This document shows positions 27,593-59,930 of a stretch of DNA of 64,000 nucleotides, in pieces. This stretch comes from Gryganskiella cystojenkinii. Lineage: Eukaryota; Mortierellomycota; Mortierellomycetes; Mortierellales; Mortierellaceae. The position numbers were made by a program, and so were the translations under genes. The stretch spans positions 1 through 64,000 of the forward strand of contig JAAAIG010000096.1 in assembly GCA_015852425.1 (NCBI GenBank), given 5' to 3'. Within the stretch, counting starts at the first letter, position 1, and each line of letters begins with the position of its first letter. The notes beneath the pieces were generated by a model. The model was given only the letters and a program-made list of their open reading frames with translations. It was not told the origin of the DNA and ran no database searches.

Positions 27593-29494
27593 TCAGTTCC
27601 GTTGCAGGACTTGTTCCTTCATCATCTCGACCAAGATCCGTTCAAACGCTTCATGAGTCTTGAACCGGTCCAGAATCTTGGCCTCCCGGTTCGACAGGAT
27701 CTTGCCGAGATCCGAGACTAATTCCCGTATCAACGCCCGTTCAATTCTTGGGAACCTGTAACCCCAAGCAAACAATGTCTGTAACATCGATTCCCGTGGC
27801 ATCATTGTCGTTTTTGTCGCAGGAGCCCATTTCGACCTCAAGCTCTCGTTTTCGCTCTCAGCTCTTGTTGTCCGCTGCCGCCACCAACGTGCACCCAACG
27901 ACGATGACGACGCAGAAGATGACGACGATGAATAGTTTGAGCACAACATCAATTCGTGCTCCTCGCTCTCACAGCAACAGCAATCCGGGGATAGACCGAG
28001 CACGAGCGCGACACAATACTCTTCCAGTGGTTCAATCTCTAGAAACGTTGCCAGTGCCATAAGATCCTTGACTGTGTATCCACAGTTGGCCTCGACGACA
28101 GGGCGTTCGCCAAGATAGATGTATCGAACCACGGCCCGGACGACAGCAGGAGGTGAGTCCTCGAATCGGATCGATCGAATGGGTTCCTGCGGTTGATCAA
28201 TTAGTGGTGGGGGTGGAGAGGATGGTATCATCGAGTTGTTATTGGCGGTATTGATATTGGTGCCTCTGCTGTTGTTTCCTGCAGTAGAAGTTCCGTGGTG
28301 CGAAGCCACGGTGACATTTTCGCTCTCCGCCGGTTCATGGTCACTCACACTGTCATCTTTGAAGTTCCCTTTCTCTTCCTCCTCAGGTGGCAAGGTGGTC
28401 AGCAGCCGTTGCATCGAGTCAGATTCGACTGTGCCCAGGACACAGGCATGGGCATGGATCTCGTCTTCCTCATCATCATCATTCCGACCGCAAACATAGT
28501 CCAACCATACGACGTCATACGGGTCTTTGGCAAATAACAGTTGAATATCCGCACCTACCGCTCGTTCCAAGAATGCAGTCAGTTTTTGCCGAGCCTCGGT
28601 GGAGATGAAACGAGCGTCCAACGGTTTCTGACTCCAGTCCAGGCCAAGATATTTTGCTCCTCTTTGGAGACGGGACGGTCTCATGGGTCCTCCGATGATC
28701 TGTCTTGGTGATAACGATGATGATGAATGTTGCTCTGAGGTCCTGGGTCGGTAGGGTCCTCTTAACAGAGGCGGCTTGTCCTTGATGAGAACGACATGAA
28801 GTACGGTATGTTCATCGACGTTTGGGAGCGTGGACGCATGTAGGTCCACTAAACAGTCGTAATCACAGTGGGGGAGAAATAGATCAAAACTTGCACTCAA
28901 AGGTTGAAACCGACCGAGGATAGTACTTATCTGACTACTCTTTTGCACGTTTGTTTTTGTTTTGCCATTTTTTTCTACTTTTCTTTTCATTTTGTTCTTC
29001 TCACCTCGCAATCCCCGCAAGAGCGTCTCTGGCTGTCTAACTGGCATATCGATGAGAACAAATGGTCGTGGTTCCTGTTGCGGTGGTGCATTATAATACC
29101 CGCGAGGAGTCATGGACGAGATGCAGAGTCGCGAGTAGTACAAAAGATCGTGAGTCACCAAGGCTTGGACAGCTCGTTGAGTGGTTCTGATCGGCCGACA
29201 TTTTAGAGAGATGATCAAATCTGGAGGGTCATCGTTATCAAGGCCAAAGGGGTCTGCAGTTGTTGATGTGATATTCGCGGTAGAAGTAGAAACGGAGCAA
29301 GTCCAGGAACATGGTCGGTCTTGGCAAACGAAGGATATATGAAAGGGTCTGGGCCTCGGTCTGTCGTCTCTATCCAAGTCATCCTCGTAAGAATCTTGAG
29401 AGTGTATGTGTGAGTGAGTGTGTGAGTGGCGGTAAAAATAAGTGTCCGGCGGCGGTAGAGAGATCTCAAAGACCACTCTGTCGAGAGTGCTCAT
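27593..29494 (-). CDS. BTB/POZ-domain protein with a split BTB fold
   Basis: Single exon. The start chosen is MSTLDRVVFEISLPPPD at 29494, giving 633 residues; the frame is open 38 codons further but that part is UTR-like. Residues 1-250 contain a MATH-like or otherwise beta-rich region (FEISLPPP, FHISFVCQDRPCSWTC). Residues 330-510 look like a BTB domain: ADIQLLFAKDPYDVVWLD, an acidic/polar insert of about 90 residues, then FEDSPPAVVRAVVRYIYLGE and LMALATFLEIEPLEEYC. BTB proteins commonly serve as Cullin-3 adaptors. The C-terminal part is helical (RALIRELVSDLGKILSNREA). A lysine-rich stretch near residue 200 could be an unspliced intron, but no in-phase splice pair was found. Confidence 0.7.
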   Translation of the reverse strand: MSTLDRVVFEISLPPPDTYFYRHSHTHSHIHSQDSYEDDLDRDDRPRPRPFHISFVCQDRPCSWTCSVSTSTANITSTTADPFGLDNDDPPDLIISLKCRPIRTTQRAVQALVTHDLLYYSRLCISSMTPRGYYNAPPQQEPRPFVLIDMPVRQPETLLRGLRGEKNKMKRKVEKNGKTKTNVQKSSQISTILGRFQPLSASFDLFLPHCDYDCLVDLHASTLPNVDEHTVLHVVLIKDKPPLLRGPYRPRTSEQHSSSSLSPRQIIGGPMRPSRLQRGAKYLGLDWSQKPLDARFISTEARQKLTAFLERAVGADIQLLFAKDPYDVVWLDYVCGRNDDDEEDEIHAHACVLGTVESDSMQRLLTTLPPEEEEKGNFKDDSVSDHEPAESENVTVASHHGTSTAGNNSRGTNINTANNNSMIPSSPPPPLIDQPQEPIRSIRFEDSPPAVVRAVVRYIYLGERPVVEANCGYTVKDLMALATFLEIEPLEEYCVALVLGLSPDCCCCESEEHELMLCSNYSSSSSSASSSSLGARWWRQRTTRAESENESLRSKWAPATKTTMMPRESMLQTLFAWGYRFPRIERALIRELVSDLGKILSNREAKILDRFKTHEAFERILVEMMKEQVLQRN

Positions 29495-29951
29495 ATCGTA
29501 AAGAAAAGCAACGGCAGAGGCCCAAAGAGAGAAGGGTCGAAGTGAGTTCCAGAAAGACAAAGTAGGTGGAGAGGAATGAAAAAGGAGCCCATTGTTGACC
29601 GCTCTCACCCTCCCTGTCTTCGTGCTCTCCGAAGGCCGAAAAATCTGATCTTCGCGCTAAAACAGACTTCTATTTTTCAGGCTCTTTTTTTTTGCTCTTT
29701 TTACTGTCCTAGGGCAATATTGGCAATTAAAAGAACATGCATGCAACGAGTACAGTATGGGATACCTTTTTTCCTGGATCCACTTGATTTTGTGGGGTAC
29801 TGTACTCCAGCGGAAACGTTGCAGGTCTTAATCCAGTTTGTTAGAATGAGCTTCAACGACCTCGGGAGTCAAACAAGTTCAAAACGTATAGACGCATCCC
29901 TTTTCATTGAGAAAAGAATTGGGTTTACGGTCCTTCAAAGACCTTCCATAT
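29495..29951. other. Intergenic upstream of the BTB gene
   Basis: Promoter side of the BTB gene and flank of the accessory island. No gene seen. Confidence 0.4.
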
Positions 29952-30824
29952 TCAGAAAGCAATCCACTTCTCGTCCAAGAACAACAAATTTGCACAAACG
30001 GGGCGAGGTTGGTGCTTAGCATAGTCAATGACAGACATGTTGACCACTGAAAAGTTCTTGTGAGGAGGGTGTTCCAGGTCAAGGTTCACTAGTTCTTGGT
30101 TTTGAGGTTCGTAGGGCAGACCGTCATGGAAGAGAAGGTCGACTCGCACGGAGTACAGAGTTTCGGGATCCGGGCATATCAGACATTCATGGAAGAGAAA
30201 GTCGTCATGCTCAGAGGACAGAGTTTCAGAATCGAGGTTCTTGAACTCTCGGTTTTTTTTGGTTCTTGGGGATGTGGGATAAAGTCGCGTTTTTCTTGTC
30301 AAGGCAGGTCGATTGAAGTGGCAGAGGCGAAGTCATGTTGGTGTTGTCAGAGCGGGTTGTGTCAGGGCGGGTTGTTCCTCCCTTCTTAGGTTTGTCTCTC
30401 CGGGACAAAAGCTTGTTTGTCTTATTGCCTGAGAGGGCGGGATCTTGGAAACAATCAGTGGCAGGTATCGAAATCGGGTTGGAATCTGGCGGTTTTTGTG
30501 CAACAGGATAAATATGATGGAGATGGCCTAGATGGAGCGCTGCTTTCTTTACCAGGCCTATCTGTTTAACGAGAAAGACACAGTATCGGAGTCATTGCTA
30601 GCCTCCACTACTTCTACACCAGCAAGAGTCTTCTTGATGCTGAGGCACTTTCCATTCATGTGTCCGGACTCGCCGCAATAATGACAGAGCTTGTTGTCAA
30701 ACCTGGGCTGTATTGACGCACAGGTTTTCAAACGCGTGTGATTGATTGACATTGAAACATGCATCTTTATTTCATTTGGTGGAGACACTCTTGGGGTCCG
30801 TTCGATTTTGAACGGCCGGATCAC
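29952..30824 (-). pseudogene. Zinc-knuckle (gag-like) relic
   Basis: From 30824 an 88-codon frame encodes a CCHC zinc knuckle, CHYCGESGHMNGKC (C-x2-C-x4-H-x4-C), the nucleic-acid-binding finger of retroelement gag proteins. After a stop the minus strand is open again from 30543 to 30226 (P/T/K-rich, GGTTRPDTTRSDNTNMTS). The sense then shifts frame into a 117-codon stretch holding two copies of a 22-residue repeat (DSETLSSEHDDFLFHECLI and DPETLYSVRVDLLFHDGLP). No reverse transcriptase, integrase or LTRs were seen. A cellular zinc-knuckle gene in decay is the alternative. Confidence 0.4.
30070..30240. repeat. Imperfect 66-bp tandem repeat
   Basis: Two adjacent copies built on TCATGGAAGAGAA(A/G)GTCG and ACAGAGTTTC, about 66 bp apart, inside the zinc-knuckle relic. 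Confidence 0.6.
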
Positions 30825-30871
30825 TTGTGGATGGTCAGATTGGAGTTGGTCTTGAGAGCTATACTCAGTGC

Positions 30872-32097
30872 CTAAGCTCCGTTGCCCCCCAAGTCCAAAG
30901 TGGTCAGAGTTGAATTGATCTTGAGTGCCTCCGACAGCGCTTGAGTTCCATTGTTTCCTATCGAATTGTTCCTCAGGATTAAAGTGGTCAAAGTCAAGTT
31001 GGTCTTGAGTGCCTCAGACAGCGCCTGAGCACCGTTGATTCCGATCGAGTTGTACCCTAGATCCAAAGTGGTCAAAACCGAGTTGGTCTTGAGTGTTTCA
31101 GACAGCGCCCGAGCTCCATTCACTCCGATCGAGTTGTTCTCTAAATCCAAAGTGGTCAGGGTCGAGTTGGTCTTGAGTGCGCCTGATAGCGCCTGAGTTC
31201 CAAGGTCTCCGATCGAGTTGCCCCTCAAGTACAACCTGGTCAGAGTCGAGTTGGTCTTGAGTGCTTCAGACAGCGCCTCAGCACCGTTGATTCTGATCGA
31301 GTTGTTACACAATTTCAACGTGGTCAAAGCCGAGTTGGTCTTGAGAGCCTCAGACAGCGCCTGAGCACCGTTGATTCCGATCGAGTTGTACCCTAGATCC
31401 AAAGTGGTCAAAGCCGACTTGGTGCTGAGTGTTTCAGACAGCGCCCGGGCTCCATTCACTCCGATCGAGTTGCTCCTTAGATCCAAAGCGGCCAGGGTCG
31501 AGTTGGTCTTGAGTGCATTTGATAGCGCCTGGGTTCCAAGGTCTCCGATCGAGTTGCCCCTCAAGTACAACCTGGTCAGAGTCGAGTTGGTCTTGAGTGC
31601 TCCAGACAGCGCCTGAGCTCCGTTATCTCCAAGCCGGTTTTCCCCCAGATCCATAGTGGTTAGAGTCGAGTTGGTGTCGAGTGCCTCTGATAGCGCCTCA
31701 ACTCCGTTAGATCTGATCGAGTTGTTGTACAAGTTCAAAGTAGTCAAAGACAGGTTGATTTTGGTGCTTCAGACAGCGCTTGAGCTCCATTGTCTCCGAG
31801 AAAGTTGTAGAACAAGTTCAAAGTGGTCAAAGTCGAGTTGGTCTTGAGTGCCTCTGATAGCGCCTGAGCTCCATTCTCTTTGATCGAGTTGGCCGTCAAG
31901 TTCAAAGTGGTCAAAGTCGAGTTAGTCTTGAGTGCTTCAGAAAGCGCTCGAACACCGCTCTCTTCGATCAAGTTGGACTGCAAGTCCAAAATGGTCAGAG
32001 TCGAGTTGGTCTTGAGTGCCTCAGACAGCGCATGGGCTCCACTATTTCCGATCTTGTTATCCCACAAGTTCAAAGTGATCAGAGTCGAATTGGCCAT
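30872..32097 (-). repeat. Tandem 84-bp (28-residue) LRR array, about 14 full units
   Basis: Units follow STLTTLDLxxNSIGxNGAQALSEALKTN and stay exactly 84 bp apart across the frameshift. Units 7-9 and 11-13 carry matching variants in the same order (LYLRGNSIGDLGTQ, NSIGVNGAR, LDLGYNSIGINGAQ), so a four-unit block of 336 bp has been duplicated. The repeat type is the RNase-inhibitor (RNI) class. Confidence 0.85.
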
Positions 32098-33101
32098 GAT
32101 ACTTGAAAGTACTTGGTGTCGTGTGGATGTCGTCGATAGTTTAGCATAGGCAGAGCTCCGAATCGTCATGTGTTTTATAAAATGCTTGTTCTTCTCAATA
32201 GATTCCATGTCAGGGCCATGTTCTGACAAGACGATAGAGTTGTAGAGTCGAGATGTAAACGAGTCATGCCAATCCTGGCTCACAAGCGCACAGGACACGA
32301 GGTCTTTAGAGCCAAGGTTGCCGGCAATTCTTGAGCGAATCTCGTGTAGATCGAGGGGATGTGTCAGGAAAATCTTTGTCGTTGGCGCGCTGAATCCCCT
32401 TCCCCACGCTTGTAGCAAACTTCGAATGGGACCCTCTGTGACTGGGAGTGAACTCTCACCTCGAACAAACGAGTTGAGAAACTTGACGGTCCTTGACTCT
32501 GGTGCGAAAAACTTGTCCGCAATCTTTTTAATGTCTTCAAGGACGTTAACTAATTATATAATTGAGCGTTATATTAGATAAGAATCATTGTGGCAGAAAT
32601 CAAACGCGATGTACTCACCCGAAAGCGCTGTGCCAGGACGGGAGTCATCAGAGACTGGTGTTGAGCTGCGAGCACGGACAGGAACAGGGACTATGTCGGA
32701 GTATGAAAACGTTGTGAATAAAGTTAGAACAATGAAGCTCATGCCCGCGGTCAATGAGAAAGCGCGACATTACCTGGCGAAGGGCGTTGTACAATGACAA
32801 CGATTGTTTTCTTGGGTGGTGTTTTTTGAAAGACATCAGAGACATCGTCTGTTTCATCGAGCTCCTCCTTTGACGGAACTTCAGTGAGCAAGATTTCTTT
32901 GCGGTCTTTTTTGGGCAGGGCGGGAATGGAGACGCGCCAGAGAGTGAGCCTGTCAGCATCGACATCAGTGAAGTCATTAGCTTTCTTCGTCTTGATTGCC
33001 TCTTTAAGTTTTGCGATAGTCGTGGTAGATTCAATCTCAACAGGGAACGGGGTTGATTCGCCATTAACAAGACAGAACAGGGTCAGGAGATTGTCGGTTA
33101 A
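30872..33101 (-). pseudogene. Chimeric Crinkler-N-terminus / F-box / LRR gene, frameshifted
   Basis: Exon A (about 33101-32774) encodes a Crinkler (CRN) N-terminal ubiquitin-like domain: LTLFCLVNGES, DFTDVDADRLTLWRVSIP, and IVVIVQRPSPG at its end. Exon B (32690-32619) is a P/S-rich hinge. Exon C starts at 32549 with DIKKIADKFFAPES...LNSFVRGESSLP, the usual post-CRN helical segment. It passes straight into HPLDLHEIRSRIAGNLG...ALVSQDWHDSF, an F-box of the Mortierella LRR type, then 28-residue LRRs. CRN proteins are effector-like modular proteins; F-box/LRR proteins recruit substrates to SCF ligases. The frame ends early at 31744 because of a one-base shift in the fourth LRR; the remaining repeats stay open in the other frame to 30872. 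No ATG lies near the CRN start in frame (the open frame reaches one only at 33356). It therefore looks recently inactivated. Confidence 0.7.
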
Positions 33102-33581
33102 GTGGAGAGTGGCGTTGATATCGGTCGTGTTATTAAGGGTGTTTCTGCTGGTACTATTAAGGTAGGCTCGACCCAGCCCTCTCTCCTCGCCACGTGACTG
33201 CCGAAGGCGGTCATGTCCTCGTAGAGGGGCTGGAGGCAAATGTGGCCCTTTACATAGGATGGATATAAAAGGAAGGTGCTTAAGGGTAGTTGTTAAGGGT
33301 TTGTTGATCTGGTTCACAATGTCACCAAGCCTGGTCACAATCCCAAAGACCCACATTCATCTTGTCACATTCCTTATCGGACATGCCCTCCCATGCGTTC
33401 CACTGGCCACGGGCCATCCATGCCTTCCCATCCTTTCCCGTCCGTTGTCTTCCATATGCCTCCCACATGCCATACCTCTTTCCCTCATTTCCCATGCCAA
33501 ACATTTTCAAGCTTCAAGCCTCACTCCAAAAACATCCAGCCTAATTGAGCATCCAGTCACTAAGCCCTCGCCTTTTGCAAA
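33102..33581. other. Divergent intergenic region between the CRN chimera and the DUF6589-like fragment
   Basis: A TTTATATCC element (about 33260, minus strand) could be the TATA box of the CRN gene. The plus-strand half is C/T-rich with many CATCC/CCATGCC words. Confidence 0.4.
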
Positions 33582-34218
33582 ATGAATCCTTCGCCAACAA
33601 AACGACCGTTCCAGTTCGTCGAAGCTCAGTCTGTTGAAGAGCTTGTTATCGACTTCATCAGACAGTTGGATAGGCATCAGATACCATTATTGGTTACCCT
33701 GCGCACCTTGTTCAATTCGACTCAGCCAGAAGTTGGAAAGGTGTTGAACTATTTTTATCGCGATGGTGGAGCAGCTGAGGTTGTCGGCATTTGGGCAGCA
33801 GTGAACAAAGACAAATCATTCATTAAGGCTGTCACGACGGTCATCGTAAAAATGGGAGGGACAGAACTCAAACGTTTGTCCGAAGTTGAAGAACTTCGAC
33901 ATCCAGCAAACGCGATCGACCTCGACAAACTCCAAACCTTCAAGCTCGACTTTATTCAACAGCATATCGAAGCCTGCGCTCCAACTGTTCTTGCAGTTAT
34001 AAAAGGACTTGCCTCTGTCAACAGCGTCAAGAAATCGGCATCTACGATCGTGATGATATGCAGCGTTCTCCTCTTTCTACGGAGTCAGAAGTCGAATCAT
34101 TTCCAAATGATGATGGGCCTCTACCTGTACAGCTGTGGAAGTCCGAGCGTCGTCGTAAGTCTTCTGTCCAAGGCTTCGATCTCAGTGTCACATACCTCGG
34201 TTCTGCGTGCTCTCAAGG
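33582..34218 (+). pseudogene. N-terminal fragment of a DUF6589-associated multicopy family
   Basis: ATG at 33582 opens 212 codons to a splice-donor-like site (aag|ggtaagtg, 34219). The segment QKSNHFQMMMGLYLYSCGSP...SLLSKASISVSHTSVLRALK matches what I know of the region preceding DUF6589 in large repeated protein families of basidiomycetes and Mucoromycota (typical: Q-x-S-x-x-F-Q-x-x-M-G-L-Y-L). The DUF6589 core itself is absent: immediately after the donor-like site and a putative acceptor (34316-34317), the sequence is F-box/LRR in a different frame. It is therefore a truncated copy. The family name is from memory of motif patterns. Confidence 0.5.
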
Positions 34219-34306
34219 GTAAGTGTCTCTGTGTCACGGACAATTCGTATTTGAAGGCACCTGTACCAATAATTTTTCTTTACCTCACCGTTGATTGTAA
34301 TATTGC

Positions 34307-35068
34307 ATGCGCCATAGGGATGAGCTCTACATCGCTATACAGGGACATCAGGACCATCTCAAACTGTTTTTGGACTCCGGAGTGCCTGATAATGCTCCGA
34401 ACAGAGATGATGACGGCGATGAGTCTGATGAACGGATCAAGGATAACCTTCTCTCACGGTCATTGAATTCGCTGTTGTTCAATGGTCAAATTCTCTTTGA
34501 CAAGGCCTGCGTTCAACGACTCGAGCAACACGCTGGATCCACCTTGAGAACACTAAAAGTGACGCCTGATGTCGGAGTCGACGGAACGATGATCCACCGG
34601 ATCTTGTGCAGTTTACCGGCCTTGGAAAGTCTCGCAACGTCGTGCTGGTTCAGTGCCGCAGATGATATTTCAGAGTTCCCAGATCGACCTTGGGTCTGCA
34701 AGGGTCTGAGAAAGTTGAGAATCTTTAATGCTCCTGAGCCTTCGGATGAAGAGTACCAAGAAGAGATTTATAGACGATTTGGTGTCACGTTCAAGAAGCT
34801 GAGATCTCTGAAGCGCTCTGGAGGCAACATGGACTGGACAAAGGCTCGTCACCATCTCGGTAGTCTGCATTCGCTGGAGCTCTTTGAAGATTACAGTGGA
34901 CAAATGACGGAGGACGATGTTCGATGGATGACTGAGCATTGGACCCGGCTGGAATGTGTTCTTGGTAGTCCACATCCGGAATATGACATTCGAGAAAAGC
35001 TGGGGAAGATGTTGCTGGAGCATGGTATCCGCCGACATCTGATTCGTGAAGTCGTTCGGTTCTGTTGA
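34307..35068 (+). pseudogene. 5'-truncated F-box/LRR gene copy (LRR half)
   Basis: An open frame of 253 codons matches the C-terminal half of the intact gene at 61106-62707 nearly throughout: both carry SDEEYQEE(I/V)YRRFG(V/I)TFKKL, RSLKRSGG(N/S)MDWTKAR and TEDD(V/A)RWM(T/I)EHWTRLEC. Similarity starts at about 34318, in the middle of an LRR, with no F-box upstream. It also continues past the stop into the 3' flank to about 35155, so this is a DNA-level duplication with a lost 5' half. The in-frame ATG at 34307 may be fortuitous; the fragment could still be expressed. Confidence 0.7.
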
Positions 35069-59249: not shown

Positions 59250-59930
59250 CAAAATGTCGATGTCATGAAGCTGGGCTTTCAACTGGCGGAACATAATCAA
59301 CACTGCCACAACCTCACCTCCGTTGTCATTTGGATTGACTCCCAGGAGAAGAAAGGACTTGTACCTTTTCTTAAGTCGAGGATCGATGACAGTGACGGAG
59401 ACGGTCGTAAATGACGACCACAACCACTGAAACGACTGCACCTGCAAGGTACAAGTCTCACCGAGTCCTGCTCAAGTGGGCTCGACCCACCCCTTCACGA
59501 CACTTCATGAGATGTGCTTCCTTTTTGAGAAGAGATCGCAGAGGTGAAAATCCGATGGGTCTGCTTGGGTCTTGTCAGCTATCGATCGGGGTCACTGTTG
59601 ACAAGTATTTTCCTCTGAGGTCCGAGGAATTCTACCGGCATGTTGGGGCCTTTGAAGGCTCTGAAATCCTTGACTATTAAGCAGGGATTGGTCTATGGTT
59701 AAGGTCTCCGATATTTGAGCGCACTGAGTCTGTTAGAGAGGCTTGAGATCGGACATACCCGGGATGAGTTCACAGAAGAAGACATTGCATGGATGATCAA
59801 GCATTGGGACGCGTCATTGGTCGCCTCCAAAGTAAAGAATAGATCATAAAACCTTTGGAAAGTTGTTACTAGATCATGGTGTGCAGAGGGACCTTCCAAG
59901 TAATACGGTGCGCACGGTAGGTTGTCCCCT
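59250..59930 (+). pseudogene. F-box/LRR relic, C-terminal half
   Basis: The plus strand reads, with stops and at least one frame change, KLGFQLAEHNQHCHNLTSVV, LKALKSLTIKQGLVY (stop), GLRYLSALSLLERLEIGHTR, DEFTEEDIAWMIKHWD. The last two blocks share frame across a TAA near 59695. T-E-(D/E)-D-(x)2-W-M-(I/T)-(x)H-W is also the ending motif of the intact gene at 61.1 kb, so this is an older copy of the same family. Confidence 0.55.

What the first reader, a model, noticed from the sequence alone, without database searches (positions are those of the whole stretch)
30872..33101. Crinkler N-terminus fused to an F-box/LRR body
Seen: the CRN ubiquitin-like start, hinge and post-CRN helical segment are in frame, across two introns, with an F-box and RNI repeats. 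Known: CRN proteins are modular, with interchangeable C-terminal effector domains, mostly kinases, nucleases or NTPases; an F-box/LRR body is not among the ones I know. Inference: a CRN-SCF chimera that could direct ubiquitination of a target chosen by hypervariable LRRs. This copy is damaged (lost start codon, frameshift in repeat 4), but intact relatives may exist.
Basis: partly seen in the sequence, partly recalled or inferred. Interest (0 to 1): 0.8.

Follow-up and report, generated by a model that had tools for sequence, protein, structure and literature searches.

The report
Broken Crinkler–F-box–LRR fusion gene
In a fungal genome, the front end of a Crinkler effector-type gene has been joined in frame to the body of an F-box/leucine-rich-repeat gene, a combination that could aim protein-tagging machinery at chosen targets; this copy now looks dead, but a second species has an independent, intact-looking gene model of the same kind.

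Summary
On the minus strand a Crinkler (CRN) header, hinge exon and post-CRN helices run in frame, across two introns, into an F-box-like segment and about 14 RNI-type 84-nt leucine-rich repeats. CRN and F-box parts meet inside one exon, where this genome's stand-alone F-box/LRR genes have their start codon; here no ATG stands there. No other CRN–F-box join was seen among 43 CRN matches (27 read at least 0.9 kb downstream, 3 cut off by contig ends, 13 compared by contig only). The copy looks dead or dying: no ATG at the CRN start, one inverted-repeat arm of a Mutator-like element 61 bp upstream, a frame slip near 31768; but an upstream in-frame ATG exists. Of 96 CRN proteins found in public data, one (Dissophora ornata, 739 aa) also has CRN + F-box + LRR, with another F-box/LRR family and junction: an independent event or a merged model. 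Seven literature searches with Crinkler/CRN terms listed no paper on a CRN–F-box protein. Verdict: a real chimera, a new variant of the modular CRN kind. SCF function is plausible but unshown, the F-box assignment is marginal, and this copy is probably a pseudogene.

The parts
32787..33086 (-). Crinkler N-terminal (ubiquitin-like header) domain, PF20147
   Evidence: E 1.7e-26, 93.4 bits; one of 43 matches in the assembly
32774..33101 (-). CRN exon 1 as far as homology goes; no ATG at the usual start (33099-33101); frame open upstream to an ATG at 33356
32691..32773 (-). intron 1 (83 nt, GT..AG)
   Evidence: aligned to the same position in L002
32619..32690 (-). exon 2, CRN hinge
32550..32618 (-). 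intron 2 (69 nt, GT..AG)
   Evidence: donor aligned to L002
32383..32549 (-). post-CRN helical segment (start of exon 3); in CRN relatives such as L002 it leads towards a P-loop NTPase
   Evidence: (63% to L002, 40% to L004)
32370..32394 (-). junction: CRN homology ends and F-box homology begins within a few codons, at the start-codon position of stand-alone F-box/LRR genes; none of these codons is ATG
32227..32346 (-). F-box-like segment (residues 70-109 of the exon 3 ORF)
   Evidence: PF12937 E 4.6e-4, below cut-off; three helices
30890..32093 (-). RNI-type LRR array, 14.3 units of 84 nt, higher-order period 336 nt
31744..31768 (-). frame slip inside the LRR array (overlap of the two LRR reading frames)
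33163..33287 (.). single terminal-inverted-repeat arm of a Mutator-like (MITE-type) element, 61 bp upstream of the CRN start; no second arm found in the window

Best explanation
An illegitimate (short-homology) recombination joined the 5' part of a CRN gene (header domain, hinge exon, about 56 codons of exon 3) to an F-box/RNI-LRR gene at its start codon, in place of the P-loop NTPase body seen in CRN relatives (join shown; route inferred). The CRN part then had to supply start codon and promoter, because the F-box part has no ATG at its start. If expressed, the product would be a CRN-headed F-box protein: the F-box docks on Skp1/SCF and the LRR horseshoe selects a target for ubiquitination (inferred from knowledge of these domains). 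A later rearrangement that left one Mutator-like repeat arm just upstream went with loss of the CRN start, and the LRR frame slipped, so the present copy is most likely a young pseudogene.
For: One exon carries post-CRN segment and F-box without stop or intron. Intron 1 and the donor of intron 2 are conserved in position with L002. 29 of 30 stand-alone F-box matches examined (29 loci) have an in-frame ATG at the junction codons; the window has none, and the first Met in exon 3 is residue 116, after the F-box. No other CRN-F-box join seen among 43 CRN matches (limits in the full report). Start lost, repeat arm 61 bp upstream. dN/dS 0.13-0.23 for CRN against its four nearest paralogues, 0.39-0.54 for the F-box against its eight nearest; paralogue-paralogue medians 0.39 and 0.40.
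Against: The frame upstream of the CRN domain is open for 85 codons to an ATG at 33356 (1-2% by chance, my arithmetic), so an N-terminally extended protein is possible. dN/dS covers mostly the time before the fusion, CRN synonymous sites are near saturation, and three of the next four CRN comparisons gave 0.36-0.70 (the fourth was saturated), so it does not show that the chimera itself was selected. The F-box is below Pfam's cut-off here, only 10 of 120 listed relatives carry it, and no F-box protein is among the PDB matches listed. No transcript data. The first rival shares the join and the pseudogene state, so the odds overlap.
Confidence: 0.6

Rival explanations
1. Dead on arrival: a chance recombination between two abundant families that never made a useful product; CRN and F-box/LRR genes are simply sometimes neighbours in the same regions.
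For: Only join seen in the genome; no orthologue found (2 hits among 141 candidates, both covering only about half of the query, the F-box half); damage at start and in LRRs. CRN and F-box/LRR genes lie head to head at C675 and C666 and tail to tail at C49.
Against: The join is clean: whole header domain, whole F-box segment, correct frame, no ATG at the F-box start; three lesions noted (start, frame slip, stop in the last partial repeat) over about 2.1 kb of exons.
Confidence: 0.3
2. Still active: translation starts at the upstream ATG (33356) and gives an N-terminally extended CRN-F-box protein with about four LRRs.
For: Frame open from 33356 through the CRN domain.
Against: The extension runs through a transposon arm; 4 of 4 nearest paralogues have the Met at the usual place, and M1 is nearly invariant in the 79-protein and invariant in the 17-protein alignment; the LRR array would be cut to less than a third.
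Confidence: 0.1
3. Positional only: two transcripts, CRN and F-box/LRR separate.
For: No RNA data to exclude it.
Against: Shared exon without a stop; no ATG before residue 116, after the F-box.
Confidence: 0.05
4. Assembly chimera.
For: Fragmented assembly (1050 contigs); several contigs end 54-55 bases into the same repeat arm, which suggests a short-read assembly.
Against: No second near-identical copy of either half is among the matches listed (next best 65% or less over the F-box). Only a few bases could be shared at the join, far below such an overlap length (inference).
Confidence: 0.04

Closest known systems
Crinkler / CR (Crinkler-RHS-type) proteins, PF20147 header
   Same: Header domain, hinge and post-CRN segment as in some Mortierellaceae CRN proteins with a P-loop NTPase body
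   Different: Body is F-box + LRR. Among 96 CRN proteins, Pfam matches of the bodies were mostly P-loop NTPase/AAA families and some kinases; F-box in 1 (one search shows 25 of 35 families). The passages read in PMC5289972 name NTPase, REase, nuclease, peptidase and GTPase domains.
Stand-alone F-box/RNI-LRR family of Mortierellaceae
   Same: F-box-like segment and 28-residue LRRs; 61-65% protein identity to the ten best own-genome matches
   Different: Those start at the F-box Met; the window copy has a CRN front instead
P0141, Dissophora ornata EDD21DRAFT_385091
   Same: CRN (91.2 bits) + F-box (31.5 bits, over cut-off) + LRR (PF24758) in one 739-aa model
   Different: Other F-box/LRR family, joined after the hinge exon and not after the post-CRN segment; its F-box Met is still present
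Ralstonia GALA (RipG) effectors
   Same: F-box + LRR effectors (PMC2244805: search listing with the start of its abstract); GALA/RipG4 LRR structures are among the sequence-profile and fold matches
   Different: Bacterial, type III secreted, LRRs assigned to the CC subfamily, no CRN header known to me. The matches are to the LRR part only; other LRR proteins match as well or better. Analogue, not relative.

Membership tests
Crinkler (CRN) | PF20147 header domain over the curated cut-off | tested here: met
   93.4 against 24.6 bits
Crinkler (CRN) | Initiator Met at the start of the header | tested here: not met
   present in 4 of 4 nearest own-genome paralogues
Crinkler (CRN) | End-of-header motif (VQRP in these fungi, taken here as the counterpart of HVLVxxP) | tested here: met
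   (window); VQRP in 75 of 96 CRN proteins
Crinkler (CRN) | Known type of C-terminal effector domain (NTPase, nuclease, kinase) | tested here: not met
   F-box-like and LRR matches
F-box/LRR SCF substrate receptor | F-box domain | tested here: inconclusive
   PF12937 20.3 of 24.3 bits in this copy; 10 of 120 listed relatives carry PF12937; three helices predicted; no F-box protein among the PDB matches listed
F-box/LRR SCF substrate receptor | LRR target-binding array | tested here: met
   (repeats and fold; binding itself untested)
F-box/LRR SCF substrate receptor | Binding to Skp1/cullin | not testable with these tools
   needs a binding assay
Functional gene | Uninterrupted reading frame from the usual start to the end of the LRR array | tested here: not met
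Mutator-like (MITE) element arm upstream | Long inverted repeats with 9-bp target duplications in full copies | tested here: met
   3 of 3 two-armed copies read (C335, C794, C203, duplications read by eye); the window has one arm only. That 9 bp fits Mutator-like elements is recalled.

The most novel reading that the evidence does not exclude
Mortierellaceae repeatedly fit CRN headers onto F-box/LRR bodies (two families, two junctions, both near the F-box start codon), building CRN-headed SCF substrate receptors: a eukaryotic counterpart of bacterial GALA effectors, either delivered to other cells or used in self/non-self conflict, of which the window copy is one short-lived product.
Probability: 0.2. 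Interest if true: 0.85.

Novelty: new variant of a known kind. Interest (0 to 1): 0.52.

Why it matters
If CRN headers are combined with F-box/LRR bodies, the known set of CRN activities would gain target-selective ubiquitination, and the lineage would offer a natural test of what the CRN header does when its enzyme body is swapped. It also shows, at base resolution, how a modular effector-type gene acquires a new body: a join at the start codon of the incoming gene.

Tried and rejected
A search with the post-CRN + F-box stretch for an orthologue of the same junction gave 2 hits among 141 candidates, each covering about half of the stretch. Searches for a second transposon arm or a repeat of the flanking 9-mer found none (one search has one further match with 3 mismatches at 59477, same orientation). 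Aligning the sequence upstream of the CRN start with that of L001-L004 showed no convincing similarity by eye. A PDB sequence search with the CRN exon gave 11 matches, none significant, the parkin Ubl among them at E 0.46-0.73. Literature: searches (Crinkler/CRN terms; Mortierella F-box/LRR expansion) listed no paper that by title or start of abstract describes a CRN-F-box protein; the papers listed were not read through, and the key survey (Zhang et al. 2016) is not held. Rejected as unlikely: two separate genes (shared exon, no ATG); an assembly join (no near-identical copy of either half).

Full report
What is there. On the minus strand, reading down from 33101, the window holds a Crinkler N-terminal domain (PF20147, E 1.7e-26), a first intron (32691-32773), a 72-nt hinge exon, a second intron (32550-32618), and a third exon that begins with the helical post-CRN segment and passes without stop or intron into an F-box-like segment and RNI-type LRRs. 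Both introns have GT..AG ends; intron 1 and the donor of intron 2 align with the own-genome CRN gene L002. The LRR array has 14.3 units of 84 nt with a 336-nt higher-order period; 200-nt blocks 336 nt apart are up to 92.5% identical, a sign of recent unequal exchange (inference). The frame slips near 31768 and goes on in another frame for 298 codons to a stop at 30872.

Where the two halves meet. In CRN relatives with a post-CRN segment, such as L002, the body that follows holds a P-loop NTPase (rows; 56 of the 96 CRN proteins have a P-loop-like motif). The stand-alone F-box/LRR genes of this genome, 61-65% identical in the ten best matches, begin where the CRN homology of the window ends. The most similar start by eye is a Mortierella hygrophila protein, P0002. 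In 29 of 30 stand-alone matches (29 loci, two places in L042; the two window loci and the second locus of the C675 gene dropped) an in-frame ATG stands at these codons; the exception, L040, has a stop beside them; the window has no ATG. The first Met of exon 3 is residue 116, after the F-box. So at DNA level the F-box depends on a start further up. The predicted structure of the exon 3 frame (mean pLDDT 83) shows three helices for the post-CRN part, a low-confidence linker at residues 53-64 (the junction), three helices for the F-box and an alpha/beta LRR horseshoe. PDB matches listed are LRR proteins, many of ribonuclease-inhibitor or NLR type; no F-box protein is among them by name other than the GALA LRR entries, so the F-box rests on PF12937 below cut-off here, on the 10 of 120 listed relatives that carry it, and on the helices.

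How unusual. The assembly (35.0 Mb, 1050 contigs) has 43 PF20147 matches. Thirty were fetched with up to 1.5 kb on each side and compared with 30 F-box/LRR loci: only the window has CRN and F-box on one strand (C675 and C666 have them head to head). Three of the 30 (L006, L010, L026) lose their downstream side to the contig end within 0.3 kb, so they cannot be judged. For the other 13 matches I compared contig lists: only C49 is shared with the F-box/LRR matches listed, on the opposite strand (the list is cut off). With the other F-box family only C205 is shared, with the F-box over 5 kb upstream of the CRN. Two more CRN-like stretches, at C666 and C386, lie outside the 43. In public proteins, a search with the CRN header among proteins of about 330-1050 residues gave 96 hits of 254 candidates. 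All 96 were scanned with Pfam (79, 17): one, P0141 of Dissophora ornata, has an F-box (and LRR). Its F-box belongs to another family; the two own-genome relatives read (L076, L077) start at the corresponding Met, and 15 residues lie between hinge and this Met. It is an independent fusion or a merged gene model; I cannot tell which. P0192 of Podila humilis joins CRN to proteasome-repeat sequence. Proteins outside that length range, or sharing too few 5-residue words, would be missed.

State of this copy. There is no ATG at the CRN start. At 33163-33287, 61 bp further up, lies one arm of an inverted-repeat element. Copies at C335, C794 and C203 have two arms 65 bp apart and 9-bp target duplications; the window has one arm, and no second was found. 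Against a simple dead-gene reading, the frame is open from the CRN domain up to an ATG at 33356. dN/dS is 0.13-0.23 for the CRN part against L001-L004 (three of the next four comparisons 0.36-0.70, one saturated; paralogue median 0.39 over 72 unsaturated pairs) and 0.39-0.54 for the F-box part against its eight nearest paralogues (median 0.40 over 378 pairs). So there is no sign of long neutral decay, but these values cover mostly the time before the fusion.

Mechanism. Shown: an in-frame join at the start codon of the F-box gene, no ATG at either usual start, a transposon arm upstream. Inferred: short-homology recombination; a CRN promoter driving an F-box/LRR body; if expressed, docking on Skp1 and LRR-chosen targets. 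The nearest functional analogue is the bacterial GALA family (F-box + LRR effectors; PMC2244805, listing and start of abstract; GALA LRR structures among the matches, best ranks 3rd and 41st). The resemblance is in the LRR and is not membership.

Literature. Searches (and 42 on Mortierella F-box/LRR genes) listed no paper that by title or start of abstract describes a CRN-F-box protein. Besides the listings I read passages of PMC5289972, PMC6131194, PMC9815663, PMC10234402 and PMC11064341. PMC5289972 gives the HVLVxxP motif as the recombination hot spot; the window's join lies beyond its counterpart, after the post-CRN segment. Zhang et al. 2016 is not held, so a mention there cannot be excluded. 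[quoted passage not shown]

Noticed in passing
window 33163-33287; G000 C335:13048-13367, C794:11588-11902, C203:20124-20439: A Mutator-like MITE family with arms of about 125 bp and 9-bp target duplications; several copies lie at contig ends, and several have a CCCCTTAA/TTAAGGGG-like motif close by (by eye).
   Followed up: partly
P0192 (Podila humilis): Gene model joining a CRN header and the start of a P-loop domain to proteasome/cyclosome repeats; another CRN chimera or a merged model.
   Followed up: no
G000 C675:20621-22397, C666:3439-4685, C49:6451-8169: CRN genes directly beside F-box/LRR genes, head to head twice and tail to tail once; the C666 CRN looks broken.
   Followed up: partly
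window 30558-31013 (-): ORF overlapping the end of the LRR array with a weak CCHC zinc-knuckle match (E 0.054), perhaps a retroelement remnant.
   Followed up: no
window 27593-29656 (-): 687-aa ORF with a weak BTB match (E 0.0044, below cut-off).
   Followed up: no
window 33564-34466 (+): 300-aa ORF without a significant Pfam match next to the transposon arm; possibly transposon-derived (recalled resemblance only).
   Followed up: no
G000 C386:20263-20610 (-): CRN-like header in a 619-aa open frame, found with P0141 but not listed for PF20147.
   Followed up: no
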